Source: Anseranas semipalmata (taxonomy: Eukaryota; Chordata; Aves; Anseriformes; Anseranatidae). From it: a DNA stretch of 64,000 nucleotides. Under the pieces are notes generated by a model. The model saw nothing but the letters and a program-made list of their open reading frames with translations, had not been told where the DNA came from and did not search any database. The first letter of the stretch is position 1, and each line of letters starts with the position of its first letter. The translations under genes and the position numbers were made by a program. Of this stretch, positions 49,891 through 56,160 are shown piece after piece. The stretch covers positions 236,030-300,029 of the forward strand of contig VXAA01000855.1 in assembly GCA_013399115.1 (NCBI GenBank), read 5' to 3'.

Positions 49891-52441
49891 CGCGGGGCGA
49901 GGAAGACAACCGCCAGCGCGAGTGAGAGACGATGCTGCGAAGTTTATTTCCGTTTAATACTGCCGTTTGGTTCGTACTGCGAAACTAAAAGGATGCCACA
50001 ACGATTATGCAATAAATGCAGAACATACCATGAGAAACCAAACTACTAAAACAGAAAAAGGAAACTTTTTTTTTTTTCCCCTAAATACAGTTCTGTCCAG
50101 TGTTTAATAGCTAATGCTGGATTCATAGACTAATACTTTGCCTCCCCCCTCCGTGTGAAACATAACTCATTGCACGGCATTAGTTTATGTATTAAAAGCA
50201 GACATTTAGCCAATGCTTACCGACAGACCATTTAATGATCCTGCATTTCAGAGCACCTTTATTGCCCCACTTCAATACTCGAAGTATAAAAATGTATCTA
50301 GAAAGTGTAACTTCTGACCAAAAGCTCAAACCCTGCCCTTGTCCTTCCCTCCCTCAACCCCTCTGACATCCCCCAAACAAAAACAACGTACACCTGGAGC
50401 TTAACTACTGTGCATGGAAAGGAAATATTTACATCCGTCACAAACCATGTCAGTACACAACATTTAGTTGAAACAGAATCTATTATTTACGCAAAATAAA
50501 ACACAGGTGAGCGGCATCCTATTTTCTGTGCCATGATGCCACCATCAGCTTTGCAGAATTATCATTGTCATTACTCTTTTTCAACTCAAAACTGCTTTTC
50601 CCCTCCGGAGCTGAGCGGGGGGCGCGGTGTGGCACACGGTCCCCACGCAGGACGGTGACATTGCCGCCCGCCCGCCCGTCCCCTCGCGCCGTGGTTCTGC
50701 CGCCGTCCCCGAGCCCGGGCGCGTCCCCCCTCTGCCTCGCGGGACCTGGCCCCTGCGGGTGGCACAGTGGCAGTGGCACGGCAATGGCCTGCGTGCCAGG
50801 GCCCGAGCGCTGCCAGCTGGGGTGCAGCCGTCCCCGCTGTCCCCAGGGAGGGAAAACCCAGCGGGGCTGGCCGCAGCCTTCCCACGCGCGGCGTGTCCAG
50901 ACCCAGGGCAGCCGTTCTCGAGGGCGTGCGCCCGCTATTCGCGCTCCCGTGCGAATGGTGAAGGGAAACGGAGCTCAGCAAAGTCTCTCACAAATGCCAG
51001 TGCTTTGAAACGTTAAACAACTTTGAAATCTTTGGGTGCGCGGGTCTTACCCGCAAAGGAACCTTTCTAGAAGAAGACAAATAAATTAAAGGAAAAACGC
51101 GCTAATAATGCCTTTCTGCTTTCTAAGTGACAAAAGCACTACCTTGAAACACTCGTTTTGGCATGTACAAGTCTGGGGGAAGGGAGGCCTGGGGGATAAC
51201 CTGGCAGTGTTCGGAACACGCGTAGAAGTGCATGCCAAGACAAGGCTGAAGTCACACCCTGCAGTCAAGAGAAGCACTCTCCTTCAGTTTATCTCAGCAT
51301 CAAGAATGAAAAGATTGTAACATAAAGCTTTGGCCATTTTTGAATCTACTATATACAATTTTTTTTTTTAAACTACATAGTCATAAATTAAAGCAGTGAT
51401 TAAATAAGCGTATACAAAATGTAATTAAATTAAAAATCACAGCACATTATAGAGAAAAAATAGGAACCATTTATCACAGCAGAGAATATTTTTTTTACCC
51501 TGTGAAAAGAACATTGGCTAGCAAACACAAAGCATCCAAACTGAAACGAAAGAAATCAAAGCCATTTTTCCCTTTCTTGCATTCATTGCAAACAGCGATC
51601 TTTACCCACTTTGAAACATTCCCAGGAATAGGATCTTCCTTGAGTATAACAGAGAAGTTCTGCCAAAACAGAAGGAAAGAAGAAACCCAAACCCAACCAC
51701 GGCGATAAAAAAGGAACATACAAACAAAACAACCCCTACAAAATAAATAAGAATTATAAAGCTTTTTTTAAGTAACCTTAACAATTATCAAACTAGTAAG
51801 TTCTGCCTTATCACATAGACTCTCTATACAACATAACCCTAACGATTTATTACTATGAGGTATTTGGAGGAATTGGTAAAAGCAATGCACGGCCTGTCTG
51901 GGCTGAGGGACTCACGCTGCTTGCAGGGGAAGGAGGAAGGAACCTTTGGTTTGTCAGCAAGAAAGTGGAAAAAAACATTTTCCTTTGGTATCAAAGAAAG
52001 TTTCATTGCATGGTTGCACGGCAAAAAGCACCACGGTGAAGAATTATTCCTTTTTTCATTAGTGGCCTTTCTAACAGGCTGAGGTATTCAAAGAGTATAA
52101 GGTGAGAGATAAAGAGGTCAACAGCGGTTTAACACTTTGGTTCAAGCAAGGCACTCGTCCTAGGAGTTTACAAAGTTTGCAACATGTTTGCCTAGAGCTT
52201 TATTATTATTATCCTTATCATCGTCAGTAGTAGCAGTTGTAGTAAGAGAAGTAAGTATTCGTCAGGTTACCATCATTACTATTAAGGAGAAGACAAGTCT
52301 ACACACTGGGTGAAGGCGAGGACAGGGTGGGACGGGGAGGTGAGGAGGAGGAGTTCCCTTTACAGACCGAGGCCGTGCATGAAAAATCTTTGGTATTCTT
52401 TGGTATCATCAATGTGATTAAAATCACCAATGGAAATCGAG

Positions 52442-52449
52442 TGAGGTAG
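52442..52449 (-). promoter_or_regulatory. ONECUT1: let-7 8-mer site next to a miR-9 8-mer
   Basis: The transcript strand reads CTACCTCA, the full 8-mer seed match for let-7. Only two bases separate it from the miR-9 8-mer at 52,452-52,459. Confidence 0.55.
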
Positions 52450-52488
52450 CGTCTTTGGTTCACACTATAAATAGTAGATCTTTACACA

Positions 52489-52489
<1 letters not shown>

Positions 52490-52519
<30 letters not shown>

Positions 52520-53639: not shown

Positions 53640-53750
53640 TGTGTGGATATATGTGTGTGCACGTATACACATATACACCCACAGAAAAATGTGTGTGCAT
53701 GTATGTATACACAGATCTACTCAGGGGCTTGTGTGGGTGGGTGTGTATCA
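53640..53750. repeat. TG/CA-rich alternating tract with a short inverted repeat
   Basis: Alternating purine-pyrimidine sequence. Within it TATATGTGT (53,648-53,656) and ACACATATA (53,667-53,675) pair perfectly around a 10-base loop, so a small hairpin is possible in DNA or in the transcript. Confidence 0.7.
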
Positions 53751-55074
53751 GATCCTGAAATTGCATATTGGGTGCAAATTTAATGCTGGTATGAAAGTTC
53801 TCTTTGGTTTCAGCAAGTAGTCTCTAAAGACAATACAATGGAAATACTAAAAAAACACGGCAATGTACTTTGAATTTCCCTGCATTTTTAAATTCTCAAG
53901 TTTTAAATAAATAAGGCTTTATCTTCTAAACTATAGGTACGTTACAAAGCAGTGTTTTGCTGGAAAAAGACTAAAACATTAGTTATCACTGTCCTTTACT
54001 AATCTTACACTAATGAAACTGCATTCTTAAGATCCTTTATAGGTGAGCTTATTAATATTTGTCAATTATGCCTCATTGGGAATGGAACACTTTAAAAGAA
54101 AGCTCGCTAAAATTTAAGGTAGGCTAGAGGCTGTAAAACCTCACAGATTATACATTTTAATAGACATTTGCTTTGCCATTTTAAAACTGAGTTTAACATA
54201 GAAAATGGGGAGAAATATCTGTTGCCAAAAATCTTGGTTTTATTTGACTTTATTTTAATAAAGAGATATTTCAGTTGAATTCTAAACACTTACTGGAAAT
54301 TAACTGTATACCCTGAAACTTGACTAGACCCTGTCATCTTGGGAAATAAATGGTGCTACAAAGTTGCTCAACTTTGGTGTTGCTAGTATTTGAGTGGGCT
54401 TCATCACAAAAACCTGTGTTGTTGATGTTGGTTGGATTCTAGTTTACCTTGAATTTTTCTTTCTCTCTTCTTTTTTTTTTTTTCCTTTAAAAAAAGTAAG
54501 TAAGATTACCTATTTCTAATCCTTTGGGCCTAACCTGCATATTTGGTTACTTTGGAATTCCACCTAATAGAATTACTACAGAAATTTGGAACACCGGTTA
54601 GAAACCTAACAGGCACATGTATGGTTTTTAAAGTCTATTTTCCCCTTACGCTAAAATTTAATATGCAGATGTTGCATGCTTTTCTTTTTAGTCTTATCGG
54701 AGTAGGGATGGGCTGATTTATCTTCTAAGGTTCTGTTAGCAACAGAGCAGTTAAAGCTTTACAGCTACAAATTTTAAACTATTTCATGCATTATCCTGAT
54801 TAACAGATGAGCAAGAAAGAATGCCCAGAACAAAAGCTCAGCTTGCTGCCCGCAGATACGAAGCCACGAAACAACAGGCTGTGCCTCGGCGTCATGGGAA
54901 CTCTGCTATTGACTTCAGAGGAACCATAATTTGGCTTTCCAAAAGCACTCCCGGAGCTCCTGTCGGAGCTGTTCCCACCAACATTACCTGATGTCCTACC
55001 GCTGTTTTCAACAGGAAAAGACCCCGAGTCTTCAAAGCTATCACTATTCCTTTGCCTAGGAAAGTCAATAGGTT

Positions 55075-55092
55075 AAAAAAAAAAAAAAAAAA
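55075..55092. repeat. A run on the plus strand
   Basis: About 18 A bases followed by A-rich sequence; a U run in the ONECUT1 transcript. Confidence 0.85.
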
Positions 55093-56160
55093 GAAAAGAA
55101 AAAAGCTCACTAATGTCAATGAGCATTGATCAGGTGCCGGGCCCTGTGGTTTTACCTTTCGTCACATTGTCTCGTTTGCACACAGAGTGCCCTGGGGTAC
55201 GGGCGGGCCGGGCGGAGCCGTGCCCCCACAGGCAGCACCGCTCGTGCTCCCCGCTGCCCACCTCCCTGCCTGCCGCGGGCCCGCTGGTGCTGGCATTCTT
55301 TCTTGCCAATCGTGGGGGGAAGAAGCAATGGTGTGGTATTCCTAATGGCAAATAACAGTCTTGATTACAAGTTTTTATGTGTTATACAGTTAGATTAGTT
55401 TATACCTATAACTCTACATAGTATTTTGTGTAAAAATAGCTTTGGAATATTAAAATCATTGCAATAAAATACCTGCAATATAATTATTAAATGTGTTCTT
55501 TGGTAGCTAGTCGATTTTTTTATGGATGGAATAGTTTTCCTTTTTTAAATCTGAACATTCCTTAACAAACAAAGAGAATGCACTGGTTTAGGTACCATTC
55601 AAAATTTCTTTGCCTAGTTTGAACTTGTTTCCGGGCGTCGTGCCAGGGAAGCTCAAACACCGAAACAGCAAAAATCACACTACCGTTCAACTGAATTCAG
55701 ACGACTCCACACCTTGCTGGTTGCGCCGTGGCACAACCCTCTCTGCAGACCAGCCCTGACTCAGTCCCTAACCACCGGCGTGTACACAGTACGGATACAC
55801 TGCACACCTTCATGGCAATCGCTGTGGAAATGAAGAGCCATATCTGAAAAGATGTCCATTCAATGACAAGAAATCACTATGCTCCAAACCACTAAACAGC
55901 CAAGGACGGTGAAGATGATCATGGACGAAGGTGTGAGACCAGTGGTCTGTTTCTCCTCTCTTTGTGTTCCATTTTGTTCACTCCATTTCGCTCTCTTCTT
56001 TCGTTTTATTTTTTGCGAGTCGTCGTCTTACTAAAGCATGTGTCTTAGAACAAAGTCATAATGCAGGTGAAATAAGTCTTTGGTTTCTTTGGACTTATAA
56101 ATAACATTTTTTTCAAATAGTTCTAAGTATAAACCTGCTATCTTGAGGTCCTGGTCTGTC

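What the first reader, a model, noticed from the sequence alone, without database searches (positions are those of the whole stretch)
51944..56084. Ten miR-9-5p seed matches on the ONECUT1 transcript strand
Six 8-mers and four 7-mers occur in 4.1 kb, all in the orientation that a minus-strand 3' UTR needs; I found none in the opposite orientation there. Elsewhere in the window I noticed only one such 7-mer, at 34,088-34,094. Chance would give roughly 0.25 sites in 4.1 kb. miR-9 control of Onecut genes is known, but this density suggests strong, graded, miR-9-dependent dosage control. It also independently supports the long 3' UTR.
Basis: partly seen in the sequence, partly recalled or inferred. 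Interest (0 to 1): 0.8.

Follow-up and report, generated by a model that had tools for sequence, protein, structure and literature searches.

The report
miR-9 site array in ONECUT1 3'UTR
The end of the ONECUT1 gene in what is probably a bird carries ten matching landing sites for the brain microRNA miR-9, far more than chance would give; that miR-9 represses this gene is already known, and the one fresh hint is that part of the array seems shared with the sister gene ONECUT2.

Summary
The minus strand at 51,944-56,084 carries ten ACCAAAG words, six of them ACCAAAGA, and none on the other strand. About 0.5-0.6 are expected (P about 1e-9; 5e-7 under the strictest null). In the 4.4 kb below the stop codon only a TCC-repeat word is more over-represented, and miR-9-5p ranks first of 85 recalled miRNA families. 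The window holds the ONECUT1 last exon and 3' UTR of what is probably a bird; the same genome encodes miR-9-5p letter for letter. Best explanation: an authentic multi-site miR-9 target. The regulation is known: a review reports miR-9 repression of OC1 in chick spinal cord, and human OC1-3 3' UTRs respond to miR-9. Not seen in print: one site and its upstream A-tract align with a miR-9 site in the ONECUT2 3' UTR, suggesting a module older than the ONECUT1/2 duplication. The 8-mers 2 nt apart resemble a doublet described in human OC2. Transcript ends, occupancy and conservation in other species could not be tested.

The parts
56224..56516 (-). ONECUT1 last exon, coding part (homeodomain, ends ...SSSTCTKA, stop TGA 56226-56224); acceptor AG at 56518-56517 read by eye
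   Evidence: Pfam Homeodomain 2.2e-11; best PDB match hepatocyte nuclear factor 6, 3.9e-47
51830..56223 (-). 3' UTR holding all ten sites, if the AATAAA at 51851-51846 is used (end about 51,830 inferred)
   Evidence: AATAAA 51851, 63% G+T in the next 54 nt; end inferred
49282..49287 (-). distal poly(A) signal AATAAA; a longer 3' UTR of about 7 kb would end near 49,265 (inferred)
56229..56235 (-). ACCAAAG in the coding sequence over the last codons (7mer-m8); the same word is in the last codons of the ONECUT2 gene, so protein constraint can explain it
56086..56092 (-). CCAAAGA (7mer-A1), one nt upstream of the next site
56077..56084 (-). miR-9 8-mer
55497..55504 (-). miR-9 8-mer
54372..54378 (-). 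miR-9 7mer-m8
53801..53808 (-). miR-9 8-mer
52453..52538 (-). block aligned with the ONECUT2 3' flank, ending in a shared miR-9 seed match (A-tract + CTATTT[A/C]TAGTG[T/A]GAACCAAAG)
   Evidence: 78% over 90 columns, E 4e-12, partly A-rich
52452..52459 (-). miR-9 8-mer (the site shared with ONECUT2)
52387..52404 (-). doublet: two miR-9 8-mers separated by 2 nt (ACCAAAGA AT ACCAAAGA)
52135..52141 (-). miR-9 7mer-m8
51983..51989 (-). miR-9 7mer-m8, 39 nt from the next
51944..51950 (-). miR-9 7mer-m8, last of the array, 93 nt above the AATAAA at 51851

Best explanation
The ten words are real miR-9-5p target sites kept by selection in the long 3' UTR of an ONECUT1 gene, probably of a bird. In neural cells that make miR-9, Argonaute loaded with miR-9 pairs its seed with these sites and recruits the deadenylation and decay machinery (general knowledge), so ONECUT1 mRNA and protein fall as miR-9 rises; [quoted passage not shown] The six 8-mers, predicted to lie in the more open stretches, probably do most of the work; sites well apart should add up, and the doublet 2 nt apart is probably filled by one complex at a time. 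Shown here: sites, strand bias, excess over chance, gene identity, a miR-9 gene in the genome. From the literature: miR-9 repression of OC1 in chick (seen in a review) and through the human OC1 3' UTR. Inferred: transcript reach, occupancy, selection and additivity in this species.
For: Counts and strands. Excess over several nulls, P 1e-9 to 5e-7; in the first 4.4 kb only a TCC-repeat 7-mer ranks higher. First of 85 recalled families, Bonferroni 6e-8; no other family survives correction. At most 2 sites per 4.1 kb strand in 129 kb of the same genome and in the parts of the window tested. Flanks largely unrelated. Gene identity. A mir-9 hairpin above Rfam's cut-off with the mature miR-9-5p letter for letter. 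8-mers in more open predicted structure than 7-mers in all four settings tried (P 0.005-0.019). ONECUT2 of the same genome has three 8-mers in the first 2 kb from its stop, 0.10 expected, P 1.6e-4 (span chosen after seeing the sites). Literature: PMC4284387 passages, PMC10914762 section 10.
Against: No RNA, CLIP or reporter evidence for this species. As a group the sites are not more accessible than other positions of the UTR (P 0.23). Pairing of the miR-9 3' part beats shuffled tails by more than one SD at only 3 of 11 sites, the coding one included. 8-mers are not over-represented among the seven-mers compared with background (6 of 10 against 13 of 32, P 0.47). Conservation in other species is untested; PMC10914762 says that mouse OC1 lacks miR-9 sites and that few PAR-CLIP reads fell on OC1, which it ascribes to low expression.
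Confidence: 0.88

Rival explanations
1. Isoform-gated target: short 3' UTR forms exclude most sites, so the array matters only in cells that use distal poly(A) sites.
For: AATAAA words lie at 56166-56182 (five, overlapping) and 56010, just above and just below the first UTR site, and others at 54254, 54244 and 52204. PMC10356556 (passages) recalls longer 3' UTRs in neural tissue.
Against: The signals near the stop sit in A-rich sequence with little G+T downstream (0.37-0.43). The AATAAA words with most G+T after them are 51851 (0.63), 49287 (0.59) and 50263 (0.57), all beyond the ten sites; within the array the values are 0.43-0.54 (0.31 at one ATTAAA). These are motif scores only. It would modify, not replace, the best explanation.
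Confidence: 0.2
2. DNA-level motif cluster: ACCAAAG is read by a transcription factor (SOX/TCF-like CAAAG core, recalled) in an enhancer that overlaps the 3' UTR.
For: The CAAAG core is shared with such motifs (recalled, not tested).
Against: 10 of 10 sites have one orientation (sign test P 0.002), which such factors do not need, and the array starts just after a stop codon.
Confidence: 0.04
3. Sponge: the ONECUT1 3' UTR mainly titrates miR-9 away from other targets, as PMC10356556 proposes for ONECUT2.
For: Many sites on one transcript; ceRNA action is claimed for OC2 (passages).
Against: A transcription-factor mRNA is unlikely to rival the miR-9 pool in neurons (inference); simple repression of OC1 is what the review on chick describes.
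Confidence: 0.06
4. Chance, base composition or a local repeat.
For: ACCAAAG is not rare in the whole window (18 against 14.4 expected).
Against: Cluster P about 1e-9 to 5e-7, one-stranded, flanks largely unrelated.
Confidence: 0.005

Closest known systems
miR-9 control of OC1/ONECUT1 in chick spinal motor neurons (Luxenhofer et al. 2014, not read; seen through passages of PMC4284387, PMC7719755 and PMC6861003)
   Same: Same microRNA, same gene, in a bird.
   Different: Whether that paper maps the same sites is unknown to me; the species of this window was not identified. PMC6861003's table names Foxp1 only as the target beside that reference.
miR-9 targeting of human OC1, OC2 and OC3 3' UTRs (PMC10914762, section 10 read)
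   Same: Multiple 8-mers per 3' UTR; reporter repression; in OC2 two 8-mers with seed sites 2 nt apart, like 52387-52404 here.
   Different: The doublet described there is in OC2, this one in OC1. Mouse OC1 is said to lack sites.
ONECUT2 3' UTR with up to 26 miR-9 sites (PMC10356556, passages)
   Same: Multi-site miR-9 target in the sister gene.
   Different: There spread over some 14.6 kb; here ten in 4.4 kb. The ONECUT2 flank of this genome has 5 seven-mers on the sense strand in its first 15 kb, with some bases unread.
Onecut1 3' UTR used as a miR-9 target reporter in the Xenopus study of Bonev et al. 2011 (PMC3361082, one passage)
   Same: Onecut1 3' UTR treated as a miR-9 target.
   Different: No site map in the passage seen.

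Membership tests
canonical miR-9-5p target (multi-site) | 7mer-m8 or 8mer seed matches on the sense strand below the stop codon | tested here: met
   10 sites, 6 of them 8-mers
canonical miR-9-5p target (multi-site) | more sites than chance and one-stranded | tested here: met
canonical miR-9-5p target (multi-site) | the microRNA is encoded in the same genome | tested here: met
canonical miR-9-5p target (multi-site) | sites conserved between species | not testable with these tools
   no vertebrate collection at hand; paralogue comparison only
canonical miR-9-5p target (multi-site) | sites lie in the mature transcript | tested here: inconclusive
   stop codon and poly(A) signals placed; no RNA data
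canonical miR-9-5p target (multi-site) | Argonaute binding and repression that depends on the seeds | not testable with these tools
   literature only: repression through the human OC1 3' UTR
ONECUT1 gene | ONECUT-type homeodomain and C-terminus, nearer to HNF6 than to ONECUT2 | tested here: met
   PDB: HNF6 3.9e-47 against ONECUT2 2.6e-37; second gene in the genome 80% identical
ONECUT1 gene | CUT domain in the upstream exon | not tested
   the contig ends with the window, at 64,000
ONECUT1/ONECUT2 shared 3' UTR module | alignable sequence around a miR-9 site, same orientation, in both 3' flanks | tested here: met
   one block only; core score 18 against at most 15 in 15 other loci on both strands; but 16 of 7,228 null pairs reach its flank score
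ONECUT1/ONECUT2 shared 3' UTR module | the doublet of 8-mers follows in both genes | tested here: inconclusive
   present in ONECUT1; in ONECUT2 unread bases follow the shared site, and no doublet is seen in the rest of 30 kb

The most novel reading that the evidence does not exclude
The block at 52,387-52,538 (A-tract, CTATTT-TAGTG-GAACCAAAG, then two 8-mers 2 nt apart) descends from a miR-9 response module already in the 3' UTR of the ONECUT ancestor before the vertebrate genome duplications. It would have stayed as the core of miR-9 control in both ONECUT1 and ONECUT2, with the other ONECUT1 sites added around it and the whole array lost in mouse ONECUT1.
Probability: 0.45. Interest if true: 0.5.

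Novelty: already known. Interest (0 to 1): 0.3.

Why it matters
It confirms from sequence alone that ONECUT1 is a heavily multi-site miR-9 target in this (probably bird) genome, and it predicts the transcript end and the strongest sites. If the shared ONECUT1/ONECUT2 block holds up in other vertebrates, it would be a traceable case of one microRNA response element kept in two sister genes since an ancient duplication, and it would make the lack of sites reported for mouse ONECUT1 a natural experiment.

Tried and rejected
Chance and composition: rejected with Markov orders 1-3, same-composition words and 15 background loci. Repeat origin of the sites: no site pair matches beyond 20-22 nt at 73-80% in the 20 of 26 families shown. 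Better pairing of the miR-9 3' part as a common feature: not found, 3 of 11 sites above one SD. General openness of the sites: not found, P 0.23; only the 8-mer against 7-mer contrast stands, with 6 and 4 sites and no correction for the four settings. Excess of 8-mers among the sites: not found, P 0.47. miR-9-3p (AGCTTTA): 5 sense sites in the 7 kb UTR, P 0.0015, but 0.13 after correction for 85 families, and 2 antisense; left as a lead. Open frame of 306 codons at 52648-53568: no Pfam match at E up to 1. Rfam scan of the window at gathering scores: no match. Paper searches for Onecut paralogues with miR-9 sites and for multi-site comparisons listed nothing; these are word searches of an open-access library only. 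A genome-wide count of the 2-nt doublet was tried twice and not answered.

Weaknesses: the block shared with ONECUT2 is partly A-rich, so its E-value of 4e-12 overstates the case. With A-runs masked in the target the core scores 18, against 13-14 for the ONECUT2 antisense and reversed controls and at most 15 in the background loci. Of the 16 null pairs that reach its flank score, the 12 printed all stem from one GC-rich 21-nt match; the other 4 were not printed. The block was found after the fact, in the only blastn run. The 15 background loci were picked by contig number, are not random, and three lie on the window's own contig. In the longer UTR readings (to 50,200 and 49,250) ACCAAAG falls to third and fourth place among 7-mers, behind TCC-repeat words and poly-A (only words seen at least 3 times were ranked).
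Full report
WHAT IS THERE. The window lies at the end of a contig of a 1.1 Gb genome. On the minus strand, after a splice acceptor at 56518-56517 (read by eye), an exon encodes a homeodomain and the C-terminus SSSTCTKA, and stops at 56226-56224. Pfam gives Homeodomain, and the best solved structure is HNF6 = ONECUT1, ahead of ONECUT2. A second gene, 80% identical over the 97 residues, is on another contig; I name it ONECUT2 from its residues by recall.

THE COUNT. ACCAAAG occurs 18 times in the window, which is ordinary (14.4 expected, 21 of 100 shuffles reach it). 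None is on the plus strand there. Six of the ten are ACCAAAGA; that share is not higher than in the background (13 of 32, P 0.47). Fitted to the interval itself, 0.54 copies are expected at Markov order 2 (P 3.5e-10) and 1.17 at order 3 (P 4.8e-7). In 128,768 bases of 15 loci of the same genome there are 32 copies on both strands, which gives 0.51 for 4,141 nt of one strand (P 2e-10), and no 4,141-nt one-strand stretch holds more than 2. Among the 7-mers seen at least three times in the first 4.4 kb below the stop only TCCTCCT, a TCC-repeat word (a period-3 repeat lies at 52750-52782), ranks higher; in the longer readings of the UTR ACCAAAG is third or fourth, behind repeat words and poly-A. 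Of 85 recalled microRNA families miR-9-5p is first (Bonferroni 6e-8) and no other survives correction; miR-9-3p is second.

WHERE THE ARRAY ENDS. All ten sites lie within 4,280 nt of the stop. The AATAAA at 51851, with 63% G+T after it, follows the last site by 93 nt; others at 50263 and 49287 would give UTRs of about 6 and 7 kb. If ten sites were scattered evenly over the 7 kb, all would fall in the first 4,280 nt with P 0.008. A main 3' end near 51,830 is my inference.

SITE QUALITY. The 8-mers are predicted more open than the 7-mers in each of four folding settings (one-sided P 0.005-0.019, n = 6 and 4), but the ten as a group are not more open than the UTR at large (P 0.23). Pairing of the miR-9 3' part beats shuffled tails by more than one SD at 3 of 11 sites. 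These look like seed-driven sites. Three neighbouring gaps are 60 nt or less (55, 10, 39), P 0.03 if ten sites were scattered over 6,954 nt. Two 8-mers form a doublet, ACCAAAGA-AT-ACCAAAGA; a 7mer-A1 also lies one nt above the 8-mer at 56077. PMC9650897 (passages) notes that very close sites hinder each other, while PMC10914762 (section 10) reads its human OC2 doublet, seed sites 2 nt apart and the strongest OC2 sites in PAR-CLIP, as cooperative. This is an open point that a reporter could settle.

THE SISTER GENE. In the same genome, ONECUT2 has three miR-9 8-mers in the first 2 kb from its stop (0.10 expected, P 1.6e-4, span chosen after seeing them) and five 7-mers in the first 15 kb (1.86 expected, P 0.04; one antisense), fewer than ONECUT1; part of it is unread. 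A blastn of the two 3' flanks gives one strong hit, ONECUT1 52,538-52,453 with ONECUT2 nt 5217-5306 from the stop, same orientation, 78% over 90 columns, E 4e-12, ending exactly at an ACCAAAG in both; the next hit is E 0.005 on the opposite strand. Part of the block is an A-tract. Of six pairings of A-tracts (three by two) only this one has similar sequence downstream (18 against 6-8), and the core scores 18 in ONECUT2 against 13 antisense, 14 reversed and at most 15 in 15 other loci on both strands. Over 77 site pairs it is the best (11, next 6); among 7,228 pairs sharing some other 7-mer, 16 reach 11. I take it as probably homologous. It also argues that the ONECUT1 transcript reaches at least 52,453. 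The bases after the shared site are unread in ONECUT2, so the doublet cannot be compared.

THE MICRORNA. The Rfam mir-9 family finds one place above cut-off in this genome (64 of 184,929 first-look candidates were scored, so more copies may exist), and it contains miR-9-5p letter for letter.

WHAT IS KNOWN. PMC4284387 (passages) reports that miR-9 targets OC1 in chick spinal cord, with mutually exclusive expression, and drives the switch to late-born motor neurons (Luxenhofer et al. 2014, not read); PMC7719755 (passages) also lists OC1 as a miR-9 target in spinal cord. PMC10914762 (section 10) reports multiple 8-mers in human OC1, reporter repression through human OC1, OC2 and OC3 UTRs, no sites in mouse OC1, and few PAR-CLIP reads on OC1. 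PMC3361082 (one passage) uses Onecut1 as a miR-9 target. PMC10356556 (passages) counts up to 26 miR-9 sites in OC2. So the regulation is known. A map of these ten sites and the shared ONECUT1/ONECUT2 block I have not seen in print (searches; open-access library, mostly listings and passages).

VERDICT. Real, strong, and ordinary in kind.

Noticed in passing
51323, 51757, 52595, 54752, 56185 (minus strand): Five AGCTTTA words (miR-9-3p seed matches) on the sense strand of the 7 kb UTR, 0.82 expected; not significant after correction (0.13). Both arms of the miR-9 hairpin might act on this UTR.
   Followed up: partly
52648-53568 (minus strand): An open frame of 306 codons, largely G+C-rich to the eye, lies inside the presumed 3' UTR, without Pfam match; no miR-9 site lies in it.
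   Followed up: partly
14864-29753 (plus strand): Six ACCAAAG copies on the plus strand and none on the minus strand in 15 kb; perhaps the A-rich bias of that strand.
   Followed up: no
about 49,445, 50,179 and 52,023 (minus strand, read by eye): TGCCGTGCAA words recur in the 3' UTR (GCCGTGCA seen 4 times, 0.09 expected); two GTGCAAT words of miR-25/92 type occur in the 7 kb. Unexplained.
   Followed up: no
   Followed up: no
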